Positions 3,838-64,000 of a stretch of 64,000 nt of DNA are shown here, one piece after another. The DNA comes from Symbiodinium sp. CCMP2592 (Eukaryota > Sar > Dinophyceae > Suessiales > Symbiodiniaceae), in NCBI GenBank assembly GCA_905221615.1, contig CAJNDT010000001.1:1849894-1913893 (forward strand). Direction: 5' to 3'. The position numbers and the translations under genes were made by a program. The stretch's first letter is position 1. The number at the start of each line of letters is the position of its first letter. The notes below the pieces were generated by a model. The model worked only from the letters and a program-made list of their open reading frames with translations. It ran no database searches and had not been told where the DNA came from.

Positions 3838-4000
3838 GCCCCGCAAACCCCGAACCCTAAACTCTAAGCCCTAAACTCAAAAACACTAAACCCCCAAAGC
3901 CCCAAACACCTAAACCCTAAACCCATAACTCCAATATAAGCCCTGAACCCTAAACCCCTAAAGCCCAACGCGAATAAACTCTAAACCCTAAACATCTTGA
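3838..4000. repeat. Interstitial telomere-like CCCTAAA repeats
   Basis: About 160 bp of imperfect CCCTAAA units with frequent variants such as CCCCAAAG and CTCTAAG. The orientation is C-rich on the plus strand. The unit is the plant/dinoflagellate-type telomere heptamer, here inside a contig and degenerate. Confidence 0.85.
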
Positions 4001-7911: not shown

Positions 7912-8077
7912 GTACCGCCGCCACCGCCACCGCCACTGCCACGGCCGCCGCCACCACCACCACCACCACCGCCACACCCACCACCACCACCACCACCACC
8001 ACCACCACCACCACCACCACCACCACCACCACCACCACCACCACCACCACCACCACCACCACCACCACCACCACCAC
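7912..8077. repeat. (CCA)n trinucleotide tract
   Basis: An interrupted CCG/CCA tract starts near 7912 and becomes a pure CCA run from about 7978 to 8076 (about 33 units). It passes directly into TTTAGGG-type repeats at 8078 with no spacer. The proline, threonine and valine homopolymer frames here are artefacts of the repeat. Confidence 0.95.
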
Positions 8078-8625
8078 GGGTTTAGGGTTTAGGGTTCAGG
8101 GTTCAGCAGCTCCGGTCCGGAAAGTTTGAAATAACACCCACGCACCCCTGAATCCCATAACATTGAGAGAGTACAATTTTCTTAACTTTAAAGCCCAAGT
8201 CCTACATTCAAACCCTAAAGCCCAAAACCTAGTCCTTAAACTTAAAACCTAACCCGAAATCCCAAAGCCCAAACCCTAGGCCCAAACCCTAAAGCCGAAA
8301 CACTAAGCCCTAAATCCCAAAGCCGAAACCCTAGGCCCTAAACCCTACAGCCCAAACCTTAGGCCCTAAACCCTAAAGCCCAGACCGTAGACCGTAAACC
8401 CTAAAGCCCAAGCCCCAGGCCTTAAATACTAAAGCCCAAGCCCCAGGCTCTAAACGCCAAGGCCCTACCCAAAACCCTAGGCCTTAGACCCCAAACCTTA
8501 AAGCCCAAACCCTCGGCCCTAAACCCTAAAGCCCAAACCCTAGGCCATAAGTCCTAAAGCCCAAACCCTGGCCCTAAAATCTAAAGCCTAAACCCTAAGC
8601 GCGAGCCCAAACCCTAGGAAACCCG
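8078..8625. repeat. Degenerate telomere-like tandem tract
   Basis: The tract starts with TTTAGGG-type units (8078-8105) on the plus strand. From about 8190 it switches to the opposite orientation and is built of a roughly 21-bp unit of the form CCCTAAAGCCCAAACCCTAGG, repeated many times with point changes. Both orientations of the telomere-like motif therefore lie within 500 bp. This is a derived higher-order version of the heptamer rather than an intact telomere. Confidence 0.85.
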
Positions 8626-9014: not shown

Positions 9015-9112
9015 AGAGGTTTAGGGTGCAGGGTTTAGGGTTTAAACCCTAAACCCAAACCCTAAAAACCTAAACCAAAATCCTAAACCCACCCCAAACC
9101 CTAAACCCTGAA
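9015..9112. repeat. Telomere-like repeats, two orientations back to back
   Basis: TTTAGGG units (about 9018-9041) are followed immediately by CCCTAAA units (9042-9112). The junction reads GGGTTTAAACCC, a head-to-head arrangement of short interstitial telomere-like blocks. Confidence 0.85.
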
Positions 9113-9119
9113 CCGTAGC

Positions 9120-9313: not shown

Positions 9314-9373
<60 letters not shown>

Positions 9374-9390
9374 TTACTATTACTACTACG

Positions 9391-9448
<58 letters not shown>

Positions 9449-9765
9449 CTACTCCTACTCCTACTCCTACTCCTACTCCTACTCCTACTCCTACCCCTAC
9501 TCCTACTCCTACTCCTACTCCTACTCCTACTCCTACTCCTACTCCTACTCCTACTCCTACTCCTACTCCTACTCCTACTCCTACTCCTGCTGCTGCTGCT
9601 GCTGCTACTGCTACTGCTCCCAACTCCCACTCCTACTCCTGCTCCAACTGCTTCTACTCCTACTCCTACGCCTACTCCTACTCTTACTTCTACTCCTACT
9701 ACTCCTACTCCTGCCACTGTTACTGCTTCTGCTACTGCTACCGCTACTGTTCCTGCGGCGTTTTC
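9120..9765. repeat. Compound trinucleotide/hexanucleotide microsatellite
   Basis: Ordered blocks: CCA/CTG/CCG-rich triplets (9120-9270), an AAC-rich part (9270-9310), (TAC)n from about 9314 to 9446 with three interruptions, (TCCTAC)n from about 9447 to 9588, (TGC)n to 9605, then degenerate CTCCTA/CTG triplets to about 9760. Open frames across it on both strands (poly-Y, poly-T, poly-V, poly-S) are repeat artefacts. Confidence 0.95.
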
Positions 9766-20183: not shown

Positions 20184-20910
20184 TGCAAGACGAAACCGGC
20201 GTTGAATTTCACAAGACAACGTAGCAGCGACCGAGCAAGTGCCAAAGGTACCCGGTGCCAAGCTCGGTGCCAAGCCTGGCGCCGAGCGCGGCGCCAAGCA
20301 CGGCGCCAAGCCCGGCGCCAAGCATCAAGGGAGCTGGCCAAGCTGCTGTGTGCCTTGGCGAAGATGATGAGGGCTTTCTGCTCTGTTAGCTTCGAGCCTA
20401 GCAATTCTCGTGTTGTACGTCTAGGCCAACCCCGCATCCTACAGCTAGCGCTCGCGCGCACGCTTCGCGCAGGGAGGGAGTCTGAGGCAAAGGGGCCTGC
20501 TTTCTTGCCTTTGAGAGCCGGTGGCTTAGTTCTGGGGTGTAATTTGATCAAGCCAGGGGCACAAATCACGCAGCTCTTCTCAGCACGCGATCTTTACCGA
20601 AACTAGTTTCGCAATCGAGCGGCTTGTTCAATCGGATTCGCTGCTGTATGGCTGCCAGAGGCAAGCGCATGTCACGAGGCTTGCATTCGAACCGCAGTGT
20701 TTTGAGTTTAAAAAACACAGACTCTCCCACCCGCCTCAAACGTCTGTGTGAAGATGCGAAGATTTTCAAGCTAATTAAGGCACGTCACTGGCTTGTGGCA
20801 GTTTTCAGCGAAATGTTGTCTGAATAAGTTTTTCTGTACACTGTAAGCCAAACCAGCAAAAACATCGGCTCACGAAACCCTGATTGTAGATCGGAAGAGT
20901 GTTTCTTCAG
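20184..20910. repeat. 727-bp direct repeat, copy 1
   Basis: Matches 21524-22250 base for base without indels (constant offset 1340), with about 10 substitutions by eye (about 98.6% identity). It contains an internal 12-bp tandem motif (GCGCCAAGCxCG, about 20250-20325) and a hairpin ACACAGAC/GTCTGTGT near 20715-20750. It does not have TG...CA ends and I found no target-site duplication outside the pair. Confidence 0.95.
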
Positions 20911-21523: not shown

Positions 21524-22250
21524 TGCAAGACGAAACCGGCGTTGAATTTCACAAGACAACGTAGCAGCGACCGAGCAAGTGCCAAAGGTACCCGGTGCCA
21601 AGCTCGGTGCCAAGCCTGGCGCCGAGCGCGGCGCCAAGCGCGGCGCCAAGCCCGGCGCCAAGCATCAAGGGAGCTGGCCAAGCTGCTGCGTGCCTTGGCG
21701 AAGATGATGAGGGCTTTCTGCTCTGTTAGCTTCGAGCCTAGCAATTCTCGTGTTGTACGTCTAGGCCAACCCAGCATCCTACAGCTCGCGCTCGCGCGCT
21801 CGCTTCGCGCAGGGAGGGAGTCTGAGGCAAAGGGGCCTGCTTTCTTGCCTTTGAGAGCCGGTGGCTTAGTTCTGGGGTGTCATTTGATCAAGCCAGGGGC
21901 ACAAATCACGCAGCTCTTCTCAGCACGCGATCTTTACCGAAACTAGTTTCGCAATCGAGCGGCTTGTTCAATCGGATTCGCTGCTGTATGGCTGCCATAG
22001 GCAAGCGCATGTCACGAGGCTTGCATTCGAACCGCAGTGTTTTGAGTTTAAAAAACACAGACTCTCCCACCCGCCTCAAACGTCTGTGTGAAGATGCGAA
22101 GATTTTCAAGCTAATTAAGGCACGTCACTGGCTTGTGCCAGTTTTCAGCGAAATGTTGTCTGAATAAGTTTTTCTGTACACTGTAAGCCAAACTAGCAAA
22201 AACATCGGCTCACGAAACCCTGATTGTAGATCGGAAGAGTGTTTTTTCAG
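21524..22250. repeat. 727-bp direct repeat, copy 2
   Basis: Second copy of the repeat at 20184-20910. The left border cuts the RT frame; the right border passes into unrelated sequence at GGACAGGG. Confidence 0.95.
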
Positions 22251-24392: not shown

Positions 24393-24631
24393 GACAGTTT
24401 GCATGCGGGGTGCTGATGCAGCTACAGAAGATAGCCGAACTGGCGGTAGCAATGCCAAGACAGGCCAGATCGTTAGGAAAGCTGGATCACCTAATTTTAA
24501 CGCTACGCCGCCCGCCTCGGCTGTGTAGCGGCAGGGCGAGGGGGCAGTCGATGTTTTTTTATGCTAGGGCGGCCTGTCAAACCCCAACCTTTACACGGTT
24601 GTTGATACGAAGTGCGAGGAGAATGGGTAGG

Positions 24632-24634
<3 letters not shown>

Positions 24635-24703
<69 letters not shown>
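24635..24703. repeat. Poly(G) run of 69 bases
   Basis: Uninterrupted G from 24635 to 24703, preceded by GGGGA. The poly-glycine and poly-proline frames across it are artefacts. Such a run can form G-quadruplex structures; it can also mark a sequencing or assembly weak point. Confidence 0.95.
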
Positions 24704-49540: not shown

Positions 49541-50281
49541 TGGCAGCATCAAACGAACCTTCGGCTTTCAACAGCTCTTGTTTACGTCCGCAGCTAAGTT
49601 CGTTCGCTGATTTGTTCGCAGCTTCAGGCAACACCCAGCGGTGCCGAAAAAGGCTGGCCTCGTCGTCAGAGCTGCTGATTCTGTTGGTATGATTTGTTCT
49701 CTAGAGATGCCGACTGGAATGCGTTTCAGAACTGCACATTCATGCGTTGCTTTCCACCCCACTGACTTGCCTGCCCTGACCTAAGAGACTCTGACACACA
49801 TCCCCTGCGAAGGGCATCGAGCCGGACGAGTTTCTCTGCGCGCTCTACAACCTTCAAGGCCATGATGCCGACAGGCCTATCCGGCTTCAGCAGCTGGCCT
49901 TCAAGTTCAGCAAGGCACTTCAAAGGCCAAGCACAGCCATAGCATGAGCTCTTGCAAGAAATCCTGTGGTGACACAAGCCGAGGCGGGTACCGGCTTCAC
50001 AAGTTGACCCGGAGACTGGAGGAGCTCGTGTAGCGGCCATGTCTGTGTTTGGTCTCGGGACGGTGCAGGGCTTCGGTGCTACTTCGGTGACCTCTGCCCG
50101 GGCAGCGGCTATGTGGCAGCAGTGACGGCGGCACGGGGTGGCCTTGGACTCGGGGAGCGCCGGCCTCAAGCCCGCACGGCCTCCACTCTTCGCCGTAGTC
50201 TCTGCGCCTCTCTGCTGTGCACTTTCCCGCCGCAGTTCCGCTCGACGAAGGCCAAATCTTTGTTGTTTGTAGCCTAAAGAG
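49541..50281. other. 5' flank of the ankyrin gene
   Basis: A long minus-strand frame here and into the ankyrin gene is a shadow of the real gene. Nothing else recognised. Confidence 0.5.
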
Positions 50282-51697
50282 ATGGCCGTGCTGGAAGTCC
50301 AGTCAATGACAGGCGAGGCACTTGCCAGTCTTGACATGAGTATCTTCGCTTTGGAGAGTCCCACAATTCTAAGCATCAAGGAGAAGCTGCAAGAACAGCT
50401 GGGAATTTCAAGCTTTCGGCAGAAACTACTGCTCGACCACGAAGTGGTCGGCAACGATGCCACTTGGAGCTCCCTTGGGTGTCCCGCCGCTATGCTCCTG
50501 GTTCTCGTAGAATACGTGAACGGAGTGGAGGAGAAACTTCTTAGCGCAGCAGCGGAGGGCAATGTGGGAGAATTGCAACGGCTGCTGGAGACGCCCCAGC
50601 AGCCTGACTGCCAAGATGCTGCTGGTGAGACCGCCGTTTACAAAGCAAGTCTCAATGGCGATGTTGCTATGCTCGAAATGCTAAGACGAGCGGGAGCTGA
50701 TGTGAACAAAAAGGCTGTCAACGGCTCGCCCCTCACGGTTGCAGCACTGCATGGGCACCAGGAGGCAGTGCGTCACCTGCTTGCCTCACAGGCCGACCCT
50801 CGGGTGGCTTCGAACGGCAAGGCTGCATTGCATACTGCTGCTGCGCTAGGCCATCTTGAGATATTGCAAATGCTTCTGGATGCGAGTGCGGAGATGAACG
50901 CAACGAACTCGAATCGAGCAACTGTTCTCCATCTAGCGGCCGAGGGTGGACATTGCAGGCTTCTTGAGTACCTGCTCGATCATGGAGCCGAGAAGGATGC
51001 AGCGAACAGGGTGGGGGCAACTGCGTTACACATTGCAGCTGCTTTTGCGAGGGCAGAGGCCGCTGAGATCTTGGTGTCGTCTGGAGTCTCCTTGATGGCT
51101 CGGAATACCAACAACGCAACGGCTCTCCATTTGGCTGCGGAAGGGGGGGATCTGGAGGTGATTCGCGCACTGATACGGCCCCTACGAGAGGCTCCTACGG
51201 TACAAGCCGCGTCTGAGGTGCTCGATGTCCCGAACCGTGTTGGTGCCACAGCTCTGCACTGTGCCGCGCAAGCAGGGCACTTGAAGGTGGTGGAATGCTT
51301 ACTGGAGGCGGGTATTGACAGAGATGCCACCAATCGGAATGATGCTACTGCTTTGCACCTGGCAGTGGGCCGGCAAAGGTTGGAGGTGGTGAAATGCTTG
51401 TTGAGCGCTCGCGCAAGCGTGCATATTCGCAACGATGGCGGCTCCATACCCTTGCTGCTTGCCGTGAAGACCGGAAATGCAGAAGTGGTACAAGTCTTGC
51501 TGGAAGCCGCTTCCGACGTAGAGTCCCGGAACCTGGCAAAGGAAACCGCCATGAGCCGCGCCTTGGACCTCGACCTCCAAGAGACTGAGATCCGCGGGCT
51601 TCTTGAGGCTGCGATCGCCGCAAGGCCCCCTGAAGGAGGACCTCCCCGTGAGACCCACAAAAAGGTGCAGGACGCACGTGTCACGTCACGCCGCTAA
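50282..51697 (+). CDS. Ubiquitin-like/ankyrin-repeat protein, 471 aa, intronless
   Basis: A single uninterrupted frame runs from ATG 50282 to TAA 51695-51697. An in-frame TAG at 50270-50272 makes this ATG the first possible start. Residues 1-79 resemble a ubiquitin-like fold (IKEKLQEQLGISSFRQKLLL and a closing hydrophobic strand AMLLVLVEYV). From about residue 82 to 445 there are some ten ankyrin repeats with the usual TALHxAA and G-x-x-x-x-V-x-x-L-L motifs (GATALHIAAAFARAEAAEIL, NATALHLAAEGGDLEVIRAL, ATALHLAVGRQRLEVVKCLL). The tail is charged (KKVQDARVTSRR). It is likely a scaffold for protein binding, perhaps linked to ubiquitin pathways through the N-terminal domain (inference). It has no intron although MRE11 and the methyltransferase gene nearby have many. 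Confidence 0.95.
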   Translation: MAVLEVQSMTGEALASLDMSIFALESPTILSIKEKLQEQLGISSFRQKLLLDHEVVGNDATWSSLGCPAAMLLVLVEYVNGVEEKLLSAAAEGNVGELQRLLETPQQPDCQDAAGETAVYKASLNGDVAMLEMLRRAGADVNKKAVNGSPLTVAALHGHQEAVRHLLASQADPRVASNGKAALHTAAALGHLEILQMLLDASAEMNATNSNRATVLHLAAEGGHCRLLEYLLDHGAEKDAANRVGATALHIAAAFARAEAAEILVSSGVSLMARNTNNATALHLAAEGGDLEVIRALIRPLREAPTVQAASEVLDVPNRVGATALHCAAQAGHLKVVECLLEAGIDRDATNRNDATALHLAVGRQRLEVVKCLLSARASVHIRNDGGSIPLLLAVKTGNAEVVQVLLEAASDVESRNLAKETAMSRALDLDLQETEIRGLLEAAIAARPPEGGPPRETHKKVQDARVTSRR

Positions 51698-52771: not shown

Positions 52772-53236
52772 GTGGCCATGTCCGAGGCTTTCAGAGCTGC
52801 AGGGCATCCATCATACTCTCTCGACGCTGATCTTGCTTTGGAGGTTCAAGGTCCAGGAGGGAATAGATGCCTGTGTCCGACACGTCCTATGTGCCACCGA
52901 GGACGTCTTTGTGATAAGACACCGAAGGCAAAGGAGGGACCTTTGCCTGCATTGTCGAAGCTTATGCCTATGCCCCGCTTGAAGGCAGACTGCGATGTAC
53001 AAGGATTGCCCTCGAATTCGCTGCCTGTGCTTCAACAAGAAGCCGATCTGTGGCAGTCCGCGGTGAAGCTGTGCCAGAAAATAGAGCCGTCCAGCCCCAA
53101 TCTACGTCCTTGTCGTCGCACGAGCTTTTGGCCGCTGCACTTAGTTTATTGGAGTAAAGCCATTGCGAAATGCGCAGGGGAACTCCATGTTGATAGGTCA
53201 CTGCAAGGTGGGCAACGAGCGGGGATGTGGCTTTAG
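52772..53236 (+). CDS. Possible further ORF of the same locus
   Basis: A 154-codon frame, first ATG at 52778 (MSEAFRAAGHPSYSLDADLA), with Cys/Pro-rich middle and EADLWQSAVKLCQKIEPSSP. It ends at a TAG. It starts only 30 bp after the previous stop, so it could be 3' untranslated sequence that happens to be open. Confidence 0.25.
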   Translation: MAMSEAFRAAGHPSYSLDADLALEVQGPGGNRCLCPTRPMCHRGRLCDKTPKAKEGPLPALSKLMPMPRLKADCDVQGLPSNSLPVLQQEADLWQSAVKLCQKIEPSSPNLRPCRRTSFWPLHLVYWSKAIAKCAGELHVDRSLQGGQRAGMWL

Positions 53237-53239
53237 GAT

Positions 53240-54991
53240 AGTGGTATACTTGGTACATGCTATGCACTTTGAAATGTAATGTAAGTAGTGTCATGTAGTG
53301 TGAGAATCCACCGAGCCGAGCCTGGCCCAGCCCGATGCCTTCGCTCCTTGAAAGGGAGCGCTTGTACATGATGCCGTGATGGAAGCGCTGTGCTGCTGCC
53401 AGACCCGACGCCATGCAACTCTTTTTTTGCAGAGCTTCCATGACGGCAGCTTAGTCCTGAAGCGACATGCTTCGTCTACCACGTGTGACGTGTCACGTTC
53501 GGAATGTGTTGTTGAGTTTATGCTGTTCAGGCTGCTTTAAAAGTTTCTGTCCGCACTTCTCGCAGCAATGGGAGCACTGACCAGAGCATAAGGAAAGCTT
53601 TTCGAGCATTGGTGACCATGGGAAGTGCAGCAGTAGCCATAGCAAAGGAGTGATCCCAGTAAGCATGGCATACGATGATCGTCCTCGCCACGGTACCGGC
53701 AATGGCTGGTTACTCCTCGCAAGCGGTGTAGGTAGACAAGTTGTGTTGCCGTATGAGAGTATTTGCTGGCAGCGATGGTGGTTGCGCAAGCCGTAGTAGC
53801 CTTTGGATATCAAGCAGAATGTCCATTTTGCTTTGGGTTTGTAGACGGCCAGGCCAGGCTGTGACATCATCCCAAAGAAGTCTAGAGAGCGCATCTACAC
53901 TTCACTTCCCTGTGTAGTGCAGTCGTTTGGACCGTTGCCGTGAGGCAGTTAGATCACGGTCCATAGCAGAAGCATGGAGCACTCAACTACCAGCGAATCC
54001 TCCTGGTACTAATGCAGCAGGCAGATCGAATCAAGGAGCCAAATAGATCAATAGGATCCAGCTCATGGTTTTGGGTGTTCAATGGTCGGGGCCAGACAGG
54101 GGGACGAGCGCAGGGGGGACTTCTGAAAATCTCAGCGTCGAAATGCTGATGGTCCAGACCTGTATGGTGGTTATAGGATGAGGCTTCGAACGCTTGCCGG
54201 GGACAAGCGTGCCCTATGCCCTATGCATTGCTGAGGTCGGATGAGTCAGTCCGGCATATGTACAAGACTTGCCCTCAAGGAAACCTTAACGCCGCCACCA
54301 AAGAACTGACGCGCTTCCCGCTCCAAGCAATGAGCTTCCAGCACACCCTACCTGGCGTGAAAGGTTGCCAATCCGTCACCAAGCCGAAAGGGTGCGTCAG
54401 CACCAAAGCTCTTGCAACGGATGGATGTGAAGCACTAGCTCCAATGGTTACCTTTGCCACGACAGTAAGACCTGTGGTTGGTACCTCGGCCACCCTTTGA
54501 TTCCCTTTCACGACCAGCGTGTTGCATTCTATGAACGCCGCGATGTTCGTACCTCAAGCAACATTAATCAAACTTAGATATAAAGAAATGGCAGATAACA
54601 TGACAGAAGATACAGAAGATGCAGCATCAGAGGCTTTGACTGTCATTTTGGTGTCGTCGTAGACTTAGCTTCGCTATACGGGAGAAGGTACAAGCCGATG
54701 GTTGAGGGGTTGCACCTGGATAGTCAGGAGTCGGAAATTAGCACATCCTTCAGGAAGTCTAAGAGTCGACAAGAAGTCACAAGTATTCTACCTGGCGTCT
54801 TCAGCTCCACGTGTCGCTCTGCATGGCGGTGGATCCTGCATGTTTCAGTAGAAGCATGAACTGGCGTGTTTGCGTTGCTTTGAGAGCTCTAGGCGGGCTG
54901 GGGACTAAGTGCCCTTAATCACTGTAGTCAAAGCTTACAACACCGAATGGGGCCTCAAACAGAAGCGAAATGCTGAGTCGTTTTCCGGGTA
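53240..54991. other. No convincing gene
   Basis: A minus-strand frame at 53493-53894 has a Cys cluster (CSGQCSHCCEKCGQ) but no defined domain. The rest, to the MRE11 start, shows nothing. Confidence 0.4.
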
Positions 54992-57335
54992 ATGTTTGTG
55001 GTCGTACAGGATGAGCTCCCTGACGCTGACACCCTGCGTATTCTGATCCTTACTGACACCCATGTGCCTTAGCTGCACTTGATGAGAGATCTCGCAAGTG
55101 CGGAAGGTGACGTGGACACACAAACGCACACAAACAGCCACATCACTATTGATTTCACTTCAGGTCGGCTTCAATGAGAAAGACAAGGTGAGCCTGAAAC
55201 GGTTCAGCCTCATCTGCAGTTTCCGGTCGTTGGCTCTTGAGGTTCGTGGGAAAGACTCCTTGGAGACGCTTGAGGACCAAATTGTAGCTTCCGCCAAGTC
55301 CCTGGCCCCTCCTGTCATGCTGAGAGGAAGCGCTGCAGATCGGCAAGAATGGCCGAGCAGATCTCGTTTTGCACGGTGATCATCTAAGCTTCTTGCGAGA
55401 GGAGCAGCTTCAGCAATGGGCGGCCACAGCTTCTGCACTGTGCCGCGTGCAGGTGGGGACCTGTTCCATGAGAACAAGCCATCCAGGCGACCTCCCGTCG
55501 GACTTTGCAGATGTCTACGTGCTAGGGCTGAGCATGCCCTGTCAGGGGATGTCTCTTCAGAACCATGAACCTTCTGAAACAGTACACGATGGGTTCTGGA
55601 GAGGCCATGCAGCTTTTGGAGCAAACAGTAGGGGCTCCGGAGTCTGCTTCAGGTGGCCTTCGAGGTCCGAGAGCTTGGAATGGCTTCTTGAAGCTGCGAA
55701 GTGTCGCCGAGCTACGCGGCTTCAGGTGGTCAGCGATCTGGCCTGCTTCGGCACCGGCCAGGTCAACTACAAGGAAGCCATGATGAGGCTTGCTCTTTCT
55801 GAGGCATCAAAGAATGTAATCCAGGACCCCAACTTGAACATCGAGTGCCCCTTGTCCTGCCTTCACGCTTGAACTTAGCATTTTCATGGTCAAGCCGGTT
55901 CAGCTGCTTCCAAGCGTGTGCTGGATGCCAGCTTCATGATTCATGGGAATCATGACGACCCTGGCGGTGAGAGTAACCTCTGTGCAGCGAACATCTTGGA
56001 GGCCGCGCGGCGCCGGGCCCAGCTGTCACCTGGTACGGAACTCCCGGTTCACAGGTGGGCGGCTTGTGCAACTACTTCGGCCGCCATGAGGACCTCGAGG
56101 AGCGCATCCAGTCGAGCGGGCGACAATTTCTGGATGGAACCTGAAAAGCACGCATGAAGGACATCGTCATCCGGCCAATCTTGCTGGTCAAGGCAGGACT
56201 GTATCATGCTGCTTTCGGAACCTTTAGCCGGAAGAAGAGGGCTCACCTATGCTCTGCCATTTTGCGATGCAAAGACAACCGAGTCGACCCACCGCAAGCC
56301 TCGAGGCCAGAACAGTCGACTCACAAAGCAGAAGAAAACTCATCTGACAGCTCATGCCTGCAAATCTTTCCGGGTTGGACAACACGAAAGAAGAGCTGTG
56401 TGCCTGGTTGGAGGGCAAGACCAGAGTGGCGATCTACGGCCTTGGCAACATCCGGGATGAACGGCTGCATCGGGCTTTCCAGGTGCCAACAAAAAGTTCA
56501 GCTTTGCTTTGCTTTTGTGGCCGGTTCTTCAGCTGCATCCAAGGCGAAAAAGGTCCGCTTCGAGGCGGGCACCGCGAGAATGGCGCAGTGTGTTGCCACG
56601 CATATCTCATGCCAGACTCCTGTGGACACCGAGAAGTGGTTCCACGTGATGATCCTGCACCAGAACAGGTGAAAGCTTGGCGAGGTAGATTCTGCAGCTT
56701 CACACCGGATGTGGTTTGAGGCACAAGGGAAACAAAGGTGCAGTTCCCAGCAAGGCGTCGGAGCCTCAAAGCTGTTGCCGGCTGTGGTGCCTTTGAAGCC
56801 CCCGGCCGGAAGTGTCAGGTGCATCCATGAGGAGATGCTCCCTTCCTTCTTGGATCTGGCAGGGAGTCCTGGCAGTGAGTAGATCTCTGAACTCGTCAGC
56901 AGCTGCTCGAGGTCATCTGGGGCCACGAACACGACTGCCAGGTGAAGCCGCAGGAGACGCCGAGCCGGTTTCGTCTTGAACATCATGGCCAATCGCGCGC
57001 ACATTTCACACGCCGTGGTAGGGCCAAGCTCCTAAGCCCTAAGCTGACCAGGAGTCGCTGCGTGGAGAGTTCTATGTGATGCAGCCCGGCTCTTCTGCTC
57101 GGTGCTCAGACGCGCTGCGTTCAGCGGCCCGTGGCGGACGTGTCCTCACAGCACCAGGTCGCCACGTCGCTGTCTCCACAAGAAGCAGGGCTGAAGCACG
57201 TCGCCTTGATTGATGTCAAGGAGGGCGTGTTCAGGCGAGGGCTAGTTGAACATAGAGACTGGTATGTCGTGCATGGCATGGTTCGTCAGGTGCAATCCAG
57301 TACCTCTTTGGACAGTGAGACCGTTGGCTGCGGAC
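54992..57335 (+). CDS. MRE11: MRE11 double-strand-break repair nuclease, at least 20 small exons
   Basis: MRE11 is the Mn-dependent nuclease of the MRE11-RAD50 complex. Exons: 54992-55063, 55164-55187, 55242-55274, 55339-55375, 55453-55486, 55561-55603, 55726-55773, 55825-55853, 55932-56001, 56055-56099, 56160-56192, 56414-56482, 56544-56564, 56616-56668, 56721-56754, 56832-56858, 56913-56942, 57052-57096, 57158-57234, 57290-about 57335. Phases agree throughout. Motifs in order: ILILTDTHVGFNEKD (metal D and H), ADLVLHGGDLFHENKPSR, TMNLLKQYTMGSGE, GQVNYKDPNLNI, FFMIHGNHDDPGGESN, GGLCNYFGRHEDLE, TRVAIYGLGNIRDERLHRAF, WFHVMILHQNR, DLVIWGHEHDC, FYVMQPGSSVATSL, NPVPLWTVRPL. All expected phosphoesterase residues are present. 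About 290 residues of the core are traced; the C-terminal region was not found. ATG 54992 is the first in frame before exon 1. Donors: 7 GT, 9 GC, 3 GA. The exon 8/9 join is the least certain. Confidence 0.93.
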
Positions 57336-59251
57336 CAAGCTCGATGGTGTCTGACTTCGTGGAGTTGACTCAGCCCAGGTGATGCGAGACATCGCTGCTC
57401 TGACTGGTCTTTGGCAGTGGTTCACTGCTCCGCAGGGCAGAGCTGCAACTGCCAGGTGCTCTCCGAGACAGGCCTCTTGAAGACAGACACCCAGGCTCTG
57501 CTCCTCGAAGTGTGGCCGAGCACGTTCCGTTGGGCAAGTGTTGGGCACATGCTGTATGTTCGTGACCTGCATCCCTGATAGACTGCTGTATGGAGATCTG
57601 GGCATCAGGATCACTCAGACAACTGCCGGTGTCATAGTATGTCATAGTGGCACTTGCTCAACTTGATGACTTAATTACGAGCATCCGTCCAACGAGCAGA
57701 GATGTAGTCTCACCACCACGCTAGCGCTTGCCGTTAGCAGAAGCAGCGAAGCTGAAATGCCGTATTGCGTTGCGTGAGCTGCCTTTGGCTCCGACGTGGA
57801 TCATGGGAACCGGAAGGACAGACTCTATGTCATGGTTTGTCAACGCATGTCAGTGTGTCATGAATAGTGAGTGCGTTCGTGCCGGCTGCACGGAGGAGTT
57901 GGAATGATTGGCGGAGCTGGCGCATTTCGATCAGTACTTCACAGCATAGTAGAGCAACGTGAGCATTCTGCGGCATGCGGCTGCGCACAAGCTTGAGTTG
58001 TACAGGAAGCCGAAGCAGCTTGCTGTCGTCATGGGCTGCCTGACCCCTGGTTGCTTTGAATCTTGACGTGGCTTCTTTCGGTCATGCCAACGAAGCGATA
58101 GTGAGGCGCCGCTGGCCTTCTCTTCGCCTTTTGGCATGCGTCTCGGGATCTCTCGGGCATTGCAGCTATGTGGAGATCAGAAGCCCACGTCCATCCGAGG
58201 CATCCGCGAGAGGGCTCCCAGAGCAGCGTCGAAGAAGGTCACAGTCAATTTCGTATATCTTCGTATCCGGATCTTCAGTATGTTCAAGCTTGCCTTTTGA
58301 GGTGGATCGCGGGAAGCGGAACTCGTTCCACTAGCGAGAATGCCATCACCTCTGCACGCTCAAAGGCACCAACCTCCGTAAATACTGAATCATCGGCATG
58401 CTGCTTCAGCCTGTTTGCATTGCTAGAGACGGTCAGTCTTTTAGTGGTCAGAAGAGCTTCTGTTACGTTCTTTCCTGCTGTCGTGTCAAGTATCAGTCCG
58501 GAAAAGTGCAACACGCAGGTTCCCACCGGGTCGTCCTGCTTAATTGTTCATGTCCTAGCAAAGACAGGCTACCCTCACAACCCTCGCCTGTGCTGCTGCG
58601 TGACATTCCTCAGGAGCACATGTTCGGCATGGGTCCAACTGCCCCTACTCAAATTGTTCCAGTGGCTGCCTGACATCTGCCAAGTGCATGGTGCACTCGT
58701 GCACATGGCGTACATAGGGTCCAAGCGCGCTGCATCGCCGGCGCACGGAAGGAGACTACACCTGCGATGCCGCAGTCGCCATCGCCGCTGCAACGGCGCC
58801 TGGATCTTCGAGATTGGCCCAGCCTGGATGGCTGCCAGGTCTGGGGGGGGCGGCCTGCATGGGCACGGGCCGAGTCGGCGGACAGCAAGCGATCAAAGCA
58901 TCCAAGGGCCTTGGTTTTCTGTAGCGGCAGAAGAGCTCCAGCTTAAAAGCAGATCGTGCGTAGCTCGAGGCGATGCTGCAACGGCACCTGTTCTGTCGCG
59001 TCGGAGACATCGGTGGCTACACGTAGTTTCGTGGTGTGACGTCACTGAGCTGTCAGGCTGCGCGGAAGGATGCCAGCTCTCGGCCGGGCAGGAGTCATCC
59101 GTTGGTCCGATGTTCCGCCGGTCTCAGCGTTGTGTGGGAGTGCAAAGTGCAGGCCTTGTCTGCCCCGTGCACCACAGTACCCTTACAGGACCTGTGGCTT
59201 ATTTGGAAGCCATCAGATCTTCAGCCGCTGCATTCCTTCCTTTGACCGCAG
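57336..59251. other. MRE11 3' part and/or 5' part of next gene, unresolved
   Basis: A piece reading SDFVELTQP near 57350-57380 may belong to MRE11. Long plus-strand frames at 58168-59337 run through without recognisable motif. A segment RLDLRDWPSLDGCQ (58800-58841) followed by GTCTGG could be an exon. Nothing is firmly placed. Confidence 0.35.
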
Positions 59252-62200
59252 GACCAAGGAAGTTGAAAACATCATCCTCGGGGAGCGTGCTGTTGCTGCG
59301 GCCACTGGAGTGGTCGACGAAGCCCTTTGCCCTTTGATTGCACCGATTGCAGACGCGGCACATCTCTGAAAGTCCGGAAGATGAAGGCTAGGTCACGGTT
59401 GTCAGAATCTTCATAAAGCTCAGGCGATGGGTGGCACCTGTTCGGAGCAGCAAGTCAGCAAGAAGTATTTTGATCGATTGAGAGCTGATGGTTCGCTGAG
59501 TGCACCACCTGCACCTGCCAGTGTGAGTGCAACAGTGCCCAGGACATGACATGGTGCCGTCGTGCGCTGACCGGCTCGGTGGGGAACCAACAGCCAGACG
59601 GCAAGGTCCGGAGGAGCTACATGTAGCTGCTTAAACTTGCATAGCTTCTATAGCTTTCAGTAAATAGGACGGGTCCACGTACAGGAACACGTGTGTTTGT
59701 TACAATAAACGTGCACCACCACCGAAGACTTAGCACGAGGTAGCCCGGCAACTGCAAAACACATGAATGGATGGACATACCCAGCAATATCAACGAAACC
59801 TCGGGCTGTCCGAAATTATAGGACTTGCAAGCTTATCTGTGCCAAGTGGTCGATACCGTCAGGATGTGGAGACATCAGAAGGTTAACTGATAACCGCAAG
59901 AGGTGAGCACGAACGGCGAAAGTGATCCTAGATCTTGTCGGACAGAATTATTTTCTGATTTTGCGATGATCGCTCAGGCTAGAACTGAACCTCGGCTGTG
60001 CAGTAGGAAAATCGTGAGAGGGCAAGCAAGGGCTATGTTGATTTTTCATAGCCAGAGAGCATGTGTGGCACAAGCTTTGAACTCGTATCACCTGGGAGGT
60101 GATTGGCTTGTCCTATGGCATCGAGGAAAGAGACCTCTGGAGTGAGCTGGTGACTTGGCGCGGAAAGGCCGAAGTTGGAGCTGTCTGCAGAGATGGGAAG
60201 ATAGACAGCCTGAACCAGAGCAGTCCTTGCTGAGGCTGAGGCACAGGATTGCAGTTCCGGGACTCGCTTGTCTGTGTCTGTGACAGTGCCTTTGCGAAGC
60301 AAGGTCAGCAACGTCTACAAGGCATCAGCATGATGGGGCTGCGACTGCGATCCGCACGAAGCCTCAGCGAGCACAGCTTGACAGGTTCCTCCACGACTTT
60401 ACGATTGTTTCCAAAATCCCAAGGCCCCGGCACAGAGCAAGTTTCACGCGCAACCTTGGCTTCGATCCGCGCGTTCAGGCTTCGCCACCCCTGCTGGGCA
60501 CTGCCCCAAACGGCACCGGCTCTTGTCAGGGAGTTGGTGGCCACTGCCCCCTGGCATTGAGTTTCTCGAAGTCTGAGCTTTTCAAGCACTCGCCAAAGTC
60601 GTTGCCCATACTGTAAGTCTCGAGGCATCCGTGATCGCACATGGGCTTTAGAACGACACGAATCAGCTAATCGATTTTCCACTTGTTGATGACGAATGAC
60701 CACGTTGCATATTGAAAAACGCCCACCGGCATTGCCATCTATCGGTATTTGTAGTAAGACTCAACTCTTGGAACCCCTACGAGCACGACCACGAGTGGTT
60801 GTCGTCGCTGAGGACCTGGCTCTTCAGTAGGTTGTTCGACTCACGAACTTCGAGCGCTTCAGCAAGCTTGCAAGTGTTCCTTCTTCCAAGGAAGCGCTGC
60901 GAAGGCCTTCAAGCTTTCTCATGAAGCACCGGCATTGTTGTGCTACTTTGCCTTGCCCGGGCTGGCCATCAGAAAACTTCGTTTGCCTTCTGATTCTCGA
61001 AAGACCAGCACAATCTCAGACAACTGACAACAGTTTGCTTACAACTCAAATGGCCAAGACATGATGCCGCCGGCCGTGCACCGAATCCAGTTCAGGATGT
61101 GGTGCATTCCCTAAAGTCCTAAAGTCTCTGCGTCCAGCTTGGTCGATACAGGCTCATGCAGGTTCAAGCTTTTGCAACATGTCCTCACGGGCCAGTGTTG
61201 AAAGTGGTGGCAAGCGTGCTGCGTTAGCCGCTCAGGTTATGAGACGCCTTACCAAGCTTTCCAGATTTGCCTGGGTCCAGAGAAGGCAAGCCACGGAGGG
61301 CGGAACTACGATCCCTGCATGCACAGAGAAAAAGGTTATCGAGTTCTTAGCAGCATTTGCAGAGCATTGTAAGGAGCCCTTGGAGCTGCACTTGAGAGAT
61401 CGCCATGCTCTGTCCGTGCACGTAAAGATCGACGTGGAAGGTGCCCCCAGCATGGAGACATGTCCGCTTCTTGTGGTGCAACGAAAGAAACGAAGAAGCT
61501 CTTCGTGCTTGGCCTTTTGCGACAAGCCCACACAGCCCTAGCTCCATGTTGTTGGCACAGATGCTGCTCGCACATTTGCGCAGGCTCGGAGTGGGAGATT
61601 CTGGAGTGGCTGTTGGCGAACCCACGAGAGATGGACAAAATCCGCACCCTAGACATGGAGGTGCAGGAGCTGAGGATGTCGTGACCGTGTCTTTGCCAGC
61701 GCGACGTCAAAGCCCCATTTTCGCGGAAGAAGAACAACAAACTTCTATGAAACGCTACAATGCTACAACAGCCTCCCAATCAACTTGAATTGCCCCCCCC
61801 CCCCCAAGAGTGGCTGTGATAGACTTCGAACCGCCCTCTTACAGTCTGTCCCTTTCCCTTCCCACCCGCCCCCAATGAATTTGAACGACTACCCTGGCAA
61901 CAACAGCCTCCAATAAGTTCCTGAACAGGTGCATCTGGGTTGGAACGTGGAGTCCTCCCGTGGGTTGGCACGCACCAAGCTCTCTCCGCAGGGCCGCGTG
62001 GCCAAGGAGATGAAACAGTTCCGGCCGGGTGGGTCCATAGGGTCAGCATTTGTGGAGGGCGATTTTGGGGCGCTGCCGTTATGGGTATTATATTCAACTC
62101 TCATGCCTTTATTCATCGTGCTGGAGGACATCGAAACGTTGGAGCATCTGGGCAAATACTTGCTGTGCACTGGATCCTCTATGGAGGTCCTTTTGCGTTG

Positions 62201-62363
62201 CGCAATGCTACCGCTGTGTTCTTGCCAACGAGAAGCGACATCGGTACTCGTGCTGTGCAATGCGATGGACACGCAGGTTCTCGCAGAGGAGTGGGTGAAG
62301 TGGCCCCACGGCGGGTGGCTTGGACCTAACCATCAAGATTTCGATAAACATGCAAGTCCGTAG
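59252..62363 (+). CDS. FkbM/METTL24-type methyltransferase-like protein, intron-rich copy (A)
   Basis: Probably a class I SAM-dependent methyltransferase-like protein; substrate unknown. Exons placed by collinearity with the intronless copy at 63.2-63.9 kb: about 59252-59330 (LGERAVAAATGVVDEALC), 59536-59605 (AQDMTWCRRAL...), 60099-60149 (VIGLSYGIEERDLWSEL), 60304-60321 (VSNVYK), 60385-60423 (VPPRLYDCFQNPK), 60479-about 60547 (LLGTAPNGTGSC), about 61162-61194, 61374-61440 (HLRDRHALSVHVKIDVEG), 61584-61660 (SEWEILEWLL..MDKIRTLDME), 61929-62186 (VHLGW..., LEHLGKYLLCTGSSME), 62277-62363 (VLAEEWVKWP..., TAG). The K-I-D-V-E-G-S-E-W-E-x-L core is typical of the FkbM family. Most introns have AG|G at both borders; donors are GT plus GC at 60322 and 60424. 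The exon 61929-62186 is about 40 codons longer than in copy B and may hide an in-frame intron. The 5' end is unresolved. Confidence 0.8.
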
Positions 62364-63040
62364 AGTGAGGGTGCCGAGCCTTTGGACTTCCTCTGAGGAA
62401 TTGCAAAAACTGTCCAGAGCCGTTGGCCCATGCTGCCGGGGGCTTCCCCGTCATCCAGTTCGAAGCTAGGCAGCAAAGCAACTAGGTGGTCAGAATCCAA
62501 GCTGTTGCCGTGCATGCAGGATTGATCTCGTAATGAGCAAGAAGCAAGAACGTGACGTGCGAATTGAACTTCGCCCCAAGCGTGCTTCTATGACCGAGCA
62601 ACTCAGGCGATCAGCTTTGTTCATCCAGCATTGCTTGGATCCTCTGCTGCATGCCCATGCTGGGGTGACCACGACCGGAATTTGGGCACTGCATACCGAG
62701 GAAAGCCAGTTCCCAAGACTCCCTTCGAGCAGGAGATTCCCAGCCGCAGCATCCCGGTGCAGTGGCCCAGCCTCAGCCCCTGTGAAAAGACGCACGGCGG
62801 CAGCGGCGGCAACAGATGGAGCACTTTGCTACAGGCTTTTACTCGTAGTTCACTGCGCGACTGAGGACTTACACGGCCCTCAGCTCACGACCGGGTCGGC
62901 TCCCCCCTCAGTTCCATCAGAGGCATAGGCGCACCAGGCAGTGCTGTTCCCATACGCTACTCACGTCATCTTCAAGAGTAGAGGGCTTTGCCTATGGTGG
63001 CGCAAGTCAGAGCTTTTCTGTGTGATGGAGGCCGTGTTTA
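62364..63040. other. Intergenic between the two methyltransferase-like copies
   Basis: No motif. Frames at 62.5-62.93 kb (KKQERDVRIELRPKRASMTE...) are open on plus but unrecognised. A 16-base match-like string near 62991-63006 (CCTATGGTGGCGCAAG) faintly resembles the end of the dinoflagellate spliced leader. Confidence 0.35.
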
Positions 63041-63185
63041 CCGAATCCGGAACCTTGGCCATACGTCAAGCGCAGCGAGAAGCTCATCAAGCTGGGTGAG
63101 CGTGCTGTCAAGGCGGCAACAGGTGTCGTGCAGGAGGAACTCTGCGGAGGATGGTACATGTTCGGAGACTCTCGGCCTTGAGAAG

Positions 63186-63905
63186 ATGGAAGAGGTGGAG
63201 GTCGGAAGCTCGGTGTTGGTTTTGGATGGTTCCCACCCAAGTCCCAAGGACATGACCTGGTGTTTGAAAGCCATCCAGAGCAAATGGGGCACTGAACAGG
63301 AGGATGGCGGCGTGATCGGCCTGTCATACGGCATTGAGCAGCGGGATCTGTGGAGTGAGAAGATGAGCAACCTCTACAGGGTGCCAACGCGCCTCTACGA
63401 CTGCTTCCAGCGGCCAGATGACTCCCCGGCGCTGGGGGGCAAAGCACCGAACGCAACCGGCAAGTGCGCTGAAGATGGAAATCACTGCTACGAAACCCCC
63501 TACCAGGTATTTCAGATCTGCTCCGGGCCAGAGACCGGCACAATTCATAGCAGAAGGTACGAGTCGCTCGAGTCCCACTTACAGGATCGCAAGCGTCTCT
63601 CCGTCCATCTGAAGATTGACACCGAAGGTTCGGAGTGGGAAGTACTGGCCTGGCTACTCAGTTCGCCACAGGACATGAACAAAATTCGCACTTTGGATAT
63701 GGAAGTGCACTTGGGCTGGGTGGCCGACTCTGCTCAAAGCAGCGCTCGAGCTTCGATGTCCTCCACAGCCCGTGTGGACTACGACATCAAACTGCTCGAG
63801 GACCTTGGAAAGTTCTTCCGCTGCACCGGATCATCGATGGAAGTCTTGGCTGAGGGATGGGGCAATGATGGTCGTGGAGCGTGCTGGGCTGAGTTGTTCG
63901 CTTGA
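63186..63905 (+). CDS. FkbM/METTL24-type methyltransferase-like protein, intronless copy (B)
   Basis: One frame from ATG 63186 to TGA 63903-63905, 239 aa, matches copy A exon by exon with no interruption. It reads KDMTWC, VIGLSYGIEQRDLWSEKMSN, VPTRLYDCFQRPDDS, APNATGKC, RLSVHLKIDTEGSEWEVLAW, MNKIRTLDMEVHLGW, LEDLGKFFRCTGSSMEVLAE. The catalytic-core block KIDTEGSEWEVL is intact and there is no stop, so it may be functional. Upstream, 63041-63175 encodes a further matching block (LIKLGERAVKAATGVVQEEL) in a different frame ending in TGA; the ATG chosen here is the first one after it in the main frame. The frame stays open upstream to 62988, so the true start is uncertain. Confidence 0.82.
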   Translation: MEEVEVGSSVLVLDGSHPSPKDMTWCLKAIQSKWGTEQEDGGVIGLSYGIEQRDLWSEKMSNLYRVPTRLYDCFQRPDDSPALGGKAPNATGKCAEDGNHCYETPYQVFQICSGPETGTIHSRRYESLESHLQDRKRLSVHLKIDTEGSEWEVLAWLLSSPQDMNKIRTLDMEVHLGWVADSAQSSARASMSSTARVDYDIKLLEDLGKFFRCTGSSMEVLAEGWGNDGRGACWAELFA

Positions 63906-64000
63906 CAGCAAGGAGGAACGATGACATTTGTCCCTCTCTTTCTCTCCTTTGTGGTGACATCGTCTCAGGAAATGTGGGGGCGTGTGCCAGGAGCCTGCAG
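63906..64000. other. 3' flank, window end
   Basis: Contains a TCTCTTTCTCTCC pyrimidine stretch; nothing else. Confidence 0.5.

What the first reader, a model, noticed from the sequence alone, without database searches (positions are those of the whole stretch)
59252..63905. Adjacent intron-rich and intronless copies of one methyltransferase-like gene
Copy B (63.2-63.9 kb) is collinear with copy A (59.3-62.4 kb). It lacks at least seven introns at exact positions: 59606-60098, 60150-60303, 60322-60384, 60424-60478, 61441-61583, 61661-61928, 62187-62276. Either B is a retrocopy of a spliced mRNA landing next to its parent, or A gained introns after a DNA duplication. Both are notable. Direct AGG repeats at the intron borders fit insertion of introner-like elements in A as well as they fit loss in B.
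Basis: partly seen in the sequence, partly recalled or inferred. Interest (0 to 1): 0.85.

Follow-up and report, generated by a model that had tools for sequence, protein, structure and literature searches.

The report
One gene, two unequally interrupted halves
The two "copies" are most likely the two halves of a single dinoflagellate gene for a double methyltransferase-like protein, the first half cut by many introns and the second by few, an old difference rather than a fresh copy made from RNA.

Summary
In detail: A and B are collinear and all seven listed introns are exact. The interpretation mostly fails. A spliced model gives A 17 introns (all G[T/C/A]..AG|G) and B at least four, three at exactly shared positions and phases, so B is not intronless. 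B lacks 12 of A's introns. A, a linker and B splice into one open frame, and full-length two-module proteins exist elsewhere (a complete-ORF transcript; Effrenium voratum). A and B are therefore probably two domains of one FkbM-like methyltransferase gene. Synonymous sites are saturated, and a tree groups A with Effrenium module 1, against A+B as one clade (AU p=0.004): B is no retrocopy of this A. Unspliced ORFs of relatives suggest the imbalance is old: several A introns recur in module-1-like ORFs, while three module-2-like ORFs lack those they span. Intron 59606-60098 is missing from all three module-1-like ORFs covering it, so probably a later gain in A. Whether the rest are gains in A or losses in B is unresolved; I lean to gains. 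It is a new example of a known kind: intron turnover after internal duplication in dinoflagellate genes.

The parts
58815..62637 (+). Module A (first FkbM-like methyltransferase module): 18 exons, 17 introns, no frameshift or in-frame stop in the model. 5' limit uncertain; N-terminal exons not found
   Evidence: Profile-to-genome spliced alignment, score 843 vs at most 90 in controls; frame checked
58839..59056 (+). A intron, phase 0 (GT..AG|G); B has an intron 2 nt away in the alignment (62789)
59092..59152 (+). A intron, phase 2 (GA..AG|G); same position and phase as B intron 62899-63030
59189..59251 (+). A-only intron, phase 2 (GA..AG|G), 7-nt direct repeat across the junctions
59329..59423 (+). 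A-only intron, phase 1 (GC..AG|G)
59447..59542 (+). A intron, phase 0 (GC..AG|G); same position and phase as B intron 63167-63248; a break at this site is also seen in ORFs P0053, P0112 and P0003
59606..60098 (+).
60150..60303 (+).
60322..60384 (+).
60424..60478 (+).
60546..61235 (+).
61310..61373 (+).
61441..61583 (+).
61661..61928 (+).
62007..62126 (+).
62187..62276 (+).
62315..62397 (+). A intron, phase 2 (GT..AG|G); same position and phase as B intron 63881-63968
62462..62606 (+). A intron, phase 0 (GA..AG|G); the matching B site lies beyond the window end
62638..62700 (+). Linker intron (63 nt, GA..AG|G) joining A's last exon to B's first; inferred from relative P0002, which begins MLGKPIPKTPF against window ALLG|KPVPKTPF
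   Evidence: inferred, and the unspliced reading is also open
62701..64000 (+). Module B (second module), exons 62701-62788, 62866-62898, 63031-63166, 63249-63880, 63969-64000; last exon(s) beyond the window
62789..62865 (+). B intron, phase 2 (GA..AG|G)
62899..63030 (+). B intron, phase 2 (GC..AG|G), shared with A
63167..63248 (+). B intron, phase 0 (GA..AG|G), shared with A
63881..63968 (+). B intron, phase 2 (GT..AG|G), shared with A

Best explanation
A and B are the two domains of one dinoflagellate gene for a bimodular FkbM-like S-adenosylmethionine methyltransferase. Shown: both modules are open and spliceable, they share three intron positions, together they form one open frame, and two-module homologues exist elsewhere. 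Supported by the tree: the module split is older than the divergence from Effrenium, so B is not a retrocopy of this A. Inferred: an ancestral one-module gene with about three or four introns was internally duplicated. The first module then kept acquiring introns at AG|G sites, some before and at least one (59606-60098) after related dinoflagellates diverged. The second module stayed intron-poor or was partly purged by recombination with cDNA. Inferred from fold and family names only: each module methylates a substrate, perhaps in the endomembrane system.
Against: Direction is not settled: 12 A-only introns against none in B is unlikely under equal random gain (two-sided 0.0005; 0.003 for 12 vs 1), which speaks for purging in B or uneven gain. 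Intron states of relatives come from translated ORFs, not DNA; matches are short (most under 85 residues) and the module assignment of P0113 and P0110 is a near tie. P0109, an A-like ORF, lacks 61441 and 61661. P0095, a non-A ORF, ends within four residues of the A-only site 62187. The AU group was named after the tree was seen, and module 2 of Effrenium and of P0056 is unplaced. No intron of A or B has a second copy in the window, and no intron shows convincing terminal inverted repeats (lowest p 0.04 among 22). No RNA from this genome. P0002 might be a separate one-module gene in its species. The start codon was not found.
Confidence: 0.72

Rival explanations
1. Same bimodular gene, but the duplicated ancestor was intron-rich and module B lost 12 introns, mainly by recombination of the gene with reverse-transcribed cDNA (at least two conversion tracts, leaving intron 63167 between them).
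For: Ten consecutive A introns are missing from B; exact removals; 12 vs 0 is unlikely under even gain (p 0.0005); several A introns look old; retroposition is described as rampant in dinoflagellates (PMC11453091, passages).
Against: The run of ten absences is not significant given three shared introns among 15 sites (p 0.09). Eight sister-clade ORFs on contigs over 60 kb each span 11-16 of A's 17 sites with no break, though these could be retrogenes. Intron 59606 is missing from 3 of 3 module-1-like ORFs. Intron 63881 near the 3' end is kept, where cDNA-mediated loss is usually strongest (recalled).
Confidence: 0.3
2. B is a retrocopy of a spliced A mRNA that landed beside its parent.
For: Collinearity and exact absence of 12 introns.
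Against: Three exactly shared introns; AU rejection p 0.004; saturated synonymous sites; no DinoSL relic in the window; fused frame and two-module homologues.
Confidence: 0.03
3. Two separate tandem genes, each trans-spliced, whose joined open frame is accidental.
For: Tandem gene arrays are common in dinoflagellates (PMC11453091, passages); P0002 starts with Met at the linker.
Against: Two-module proteins at 59-61% over the full query, one a transcript ORF named complete; no Met in the spliced frame from A's SSMEV to B's YMFGD; P0005, P0064 and P0065 also carry the C-terminus of one module ahead of the next.
Confidence: 0.06

Closest known systems
Long (fused, two-domain) sPCP genes of Symbiodinium (PMC4201569, abstract and section list seen)
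   Same: Dinoflagellate gene made by duplication and fusion of a domain; introns gained independently after fusion
   Different: The abstract reports two introns in the long genes; here one module carries 17 and the other at least four, with three shared positions, and the imbalance seems shared by related lineages
Introner-driven intron gain in dinoflagellates (Roy et al. 2023, known here only through the review PMC11453091, passages; the paper is not held) and introners in PMC9860276 (passages)
   Same: Introns gained recently and often in dinoflagellates; short direct repeats at junctions
   Different: No repeated intron family and no terminal inverted repeats could be shown here
DinoSL-tagged dinoflagellate retrogenes (PMC12014239, passages)
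   Same: Copies made from RNA; methyltransferase-21 is among the retrogene functions with raised expression there
   Different: B keeps introns and lies inside the gene; no DinoSL relic
FkbM methyltransferase family, PF05050; structure 2py6
   Same: Weak Pfam match around the K-I-D-x-E-G-x-E-W stretch, and the best structural match
   Different: Single window modules score below the Pfam cut-off; many of the relatives found here have two modules

Membership tests
Processed retrocopy of A | Lacks all introns of the parent | tested here: not met
   B has four introns, three at A's exact positions
Processed retrocopy of A | Nearest relative is the parent gene | tested here: not met
   A groups with Effrenium module 1; AU p 0.004 against A+B and kin, the group being named after the tree was seen
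Processed retrocopy of A | DinoSL relic upstream (dinoflagellate retrogenes) | tested here: not met
   0 matches with up to 3 mismatches in the window; the 12-nt core with 2 mismatches matches 7 times against 8.7 expected, none between 46.4 and 64 kb
Bimodular (tandem-domain) FkbM-like gene | Two modules in one open frame | tested here: met
   681-codon frame; homologues with two HMM domains; B's last exon is outside the window
Bimodular (tandem-domain) FkbM-like gene | Single mRNA covering both modules in this organism | not testable with these tools
   No RNA from this genome; only relatives' proteins
FkbM methyltransferase (PF05050) | Score above Pfam gathering cut-off | tested here: inconclusive
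   Met by P0054 (27.2) and P0055 (26.8, cut-off 22.7), not by P0004, P0002, module A (12.0) or B (14.8)
FkbM methyltransferase (PF05050) | NCBIfam fkbM_fam cut-off | tested here: not met
   P0054 19.4 and P0055 17.5 against 37.7; no match for P0002 and P0004; the window modules were not scanned in this library
FkbM methyltransferase (PF05050) | FkbM-type methyltransferase fold | tested here: inconclusive
Introner insertion (for A-only introns) | Many near-identical copies in the genome | not testable with these tools
   Genome search did not complete; none in the window
Introner insertion (for A-only introns) | Terminal inverted repeats / target-site duplications | tested here: inconclusive
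   No clear inverted repeats; direct repeats of 4 nt or more at 8 of 22 introns against 6% background, partly explained by splice consensus

The most novel reading that the evidence does not exclude
One gene whose two ancient halves have kept opposite intron regimes across several dinoflagellate lineages, because the second half is repeatedly overwritten by its own cDNA while the first half keeps gaining introns: a within-gene natural experiment on intron gain against loss.
Probability: 0.25. Interest if true: 0.65.

Novelty: new member of a known kind. Interest (0 to 1): 0.42.

Why it matters
Two homologous modules in one transcription unit share expression, chromatin and mutation environment, so a 12-to-0 difference in introns cannot easily be blamed on gene-level expression or retroposition rate. 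With DNA from a handful of related dinoflagellates the gain or loss of each of 12 introns could be dated, with module 2 as internal control. It also warns that 'adjacent gene copies' in dinoflagellate assemblies can be domains of one gene, and that gene finders expecting GT donors would miss many of these introns (14 of 22 here start with GA or GC).

Tried and rejected
Recent retrocopy: rejected (shared introns, AU test, saturation, no DinoSL relic). A as a decaying pseudogene: rejected; the spliced model has no frameshift or stop. Third module: none found in the stretches tested (53200-57900 and three other stretches, both strands; tblastn of P0054-P0056 gave no match below 58000 at E 0.1). 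N-terminal membrane-anchor exons upstream of 58784: tblastn with the N-termini of P0054, P0055, P0056, P0004, P0005 showed no convincing hit in the part of the output that I saw (cut). Contiguous-block test for cDNA loss: not significant (0.09). Exon ends in AG at 8 of 12 A-only against 2 of 10 other introns (counted; hypergeometric one-sided 0.038 by hand, not planned beforehand): suggestive of insertion at AGG sites, but exonic AG is also part of the splice signal. P0095 and P0102 were left out of the direction argument because their contigs (under 4 kb) may be transcripts; P0095 spans 60150-62007 unbroken and ends near 62187, P0102 spans 60546-62462 unbroken. The automatic table lists 60150 and 60322 as spanned in P0115 and P0112, 60546 as spanned in P0114, 61441 as spanned in one piece of P0110 and 62187 as spanned in P0117; reading the sequences I take these as chance extension past a break. 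Tree: of 90 proteins plus the two window modules, 94 module rows with at least 150 profile columns were kept; shorter ones (P0053, P0043 and others) were dropped, and the 34 new proteins were not added. One search scored only the 7993 candidates sharing most words. Intron states were read from a hand-picked 23 of 124 proteins and 22 of 124.
Full report
WHAT WAS CLAIMED AND WHETHER IT IS THERE. tblastn of the B frame against the window finds A as eight matches in order, seven of them 48-79% identical and one at 30% because it runs across an intron; all other window matches have E 0.25 or worse. I built a profile from six relatives (P0002, P0004, P0005, P0006, P0008, P0010; aligned) and aligned it to the DNA with introns allowed in all phases. 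All seven listed introns come out at exactly the stated coordinates, with ten further introns in A.

CONTROLS. The profile scores 843 on A and 1091 on B; nine other window stretches or strands score 69-88, six shuffles of the A region 69-90 (a script without the codon-insertion and frameshift steps). Splice signals were then tested. Without any splice preference A scores 837.7 and B 1091.0; forcing every intron to G[T/C/A]..AG|G gives 828.8 and 1088.3. For A this is the best of 256 boundary signatures (next 592.9, median 332); allowing only GT..AG drops A to 584. So the introns look real and use the GT, GC and GA donors described for dinoflagellates (PMC11453091, passages; PMC7245778, passages): 8 GT, 8 GA, 6 GC, with AG|G at 22 of 22 acceptors, the linker intron included. 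The repeated AGG at the borders is first of all the splice consensus.

B IS NOT INTRONLESS AND PROBABLY NOT A SEPARATE GENE. The model gives B four introns before the window ends; three sit at the same residue and phase as an A intron (59092/62899, 59447/63167, 62315/63881), and one pair is offset by 2 nt (58839/62789). Twelve A introns have no counterpart in B; one (62462) cannot be judged because the window ends. Removing 21 introns leaves one 681-codon open frame from upstream of A through a linker into B. From A's SSMEV to B's YMFGD that frame holds no Met. P0002, a relative 93% identical to B over 85% of the query and contiguous across B's introns, begins MLGKPIPKTPF, matching the window's ...ALLG|KPVPKTPF if a 63-nt GA..AG intron at 62638-62700 is removed. 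P0002 could also be a separate one-module gene.

TWO-MODULE PROTEINS ELSEWHERE. The fused 635-aa query finds P0054 (transcript ORF named complete, 784 aa, 61% over 100%), P0055 (Effrenium voratum, 767 aa, 59% over 100%) and P0056 (674 aa, 48% over 100%), with P0057 and P0058 among others (which scored only the 7993 candidates sharing most words). A module HMM finds two domains in each of these five. P0054 and P0055 start with a hydrophobic segment that looks like a membrane anchor (read by eye).

AGE. A and B are 60% identical in protein (172/285); fourfold sites agree in 24 of 79, 30% against 26% expected from composition; dS is 3.4 by LWL85 and undefined by NG86. In a tree of 94 modules, A joins module 1 of Effrenium and of P0056 (99/98), B joins P0001-P0003 (100/99); module 2 of Effrenium and of P0056 is not placed, and the latter is a long branch. 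Holding A, B and B's kin together costs 35 log units, AU p 0.0039; the group was named after the tree was seen. B is not a retrocopy of this A. No DinoSL relic was found.

WHICH INTRONS ARE OLD. Related DNA was out of reach, but the protein collection holds ORFs from other contigs that read into introns. Among A-like ones, a break at 59447 is present in 2 of 2 that show the site, at 60150 in 3 of 3 (by eye; the automatic table lists two of them as spanned), at 61441 in 5 of 6, at 61661 in 4 of 5; 61310, and by eye 60546, is broken in the one that covers them (P0114). P0120, counted here, may be a copy of this very locus. Intron 59606 is absent in 3 of 3 (P0053, P0115, P0112). P0109 lacks 61441 and 61661 but breaks at 62007. 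Matches are short (most under 85 residues), and P0113 and P0110 are nearest to P0056 module 1 by narrow margins. For module 2, P0003 (85% identical to B) spans 9 A-only sites, P0111 five and P0117 six (seven by the automatic count) without a break; P0111 is 97.6% and P0117 53.8% identical to module 2 of P0056. P0003, P0111 and P0117 each break or end near residue 249-253, where A and B have no intron, so module 2 may gain introns too. Eight sister-clade ORFs on contigs over 60 kb (P0011, P0012, P0014, P0016, P0020, P0039, P0069, P0075) span 11-16 of A's 17 sites without a break, sites shared with B among them. P0095, on a 4-kb contig, spans eight sites and ends within four residues of 62187. 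All these are inferences from protein ends; contigs are called genomic by length alone, and sister-clade genes may be retrogenes.

MECHANISM. Parsimony on these states favours gains in module 1, one of them (59606) recent. Against it, 12 to 0 is improbable under even gain (p 0.0005; 12 to 1, 0.003), which favours purging of B by cDNA recombination; but the run of ten absences is not significant (0.09). Direct repeats across junctions are longer than background (mean 3.2 against 1.7; 8 of 22 with 4 nt or more against 6%), without convincing inverted repeats, and no intron has a copy in the window at E 0.05. I put gain in A at about 0.55, loss in B at 0.3.

LITERATURE. A search for dinoflagellate + FkbM + methyltransferase returned eight papers, none of which seems from title and abstract start to be about this family; none was opened. 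A search on intron loss and domain duplication listed 12 of 23 papers, none by title on a module pair with such an imbalance. The closest precedent seen is the fused sPCP gene with introns gained after fusion (PMC4201569, abstract).

Noticed in passing
50273-51694 +: 474-codon open frame with strong ankyrin-repeat matches (Ank_2 E 7.6e-60), open over its whole length.
   Followed up: partly
20184-20483 and 21524-21823: 300-nt direct repeat, 98% identical, 1340 bases apart.
   Followed up: no
3845-3993, 8210-8598, 9043-9114: Degenerate AAACCCT-type (telomere-like) repeat arrays inside the window.
   Followed up: no
9317-9712; 7921-8077; 24630-24703: Long simple repeats: CTACTC array, CCA array, and a G run of 74 (97% matches).
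   Followed up: no
P0056 residues 397-673: Module 2 of this relative has lost the conserved KIDTEGSEW stretch (reads KIDIGDKSME) and sits on a long branch: perhaps a pseudo-enzyme module.
   Followed up: no
P0120 (four contigs, longest 58 kb), matching window about 61450-61700: Close copy of the A exon that also reads a similar, shorter version of intron 61441-61583: another allele, species or paralogue of the A locus.
   Followed up: partly
P0001 (contig of 939 kb), matching module B: Near-identical B ORF (99%) that differs inside the intron 63167-63248 region: perhaps another haplotype or assembly of this locus.
   Followed up: no
P0075, P0078, P0089: The same methyltransferase module is found at the C-terminus of 853-921 aa proteins with long N-terminal parts; a source names a nucleotide-diphospho-sugar transferase domain for P0078.
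   Followed up: no
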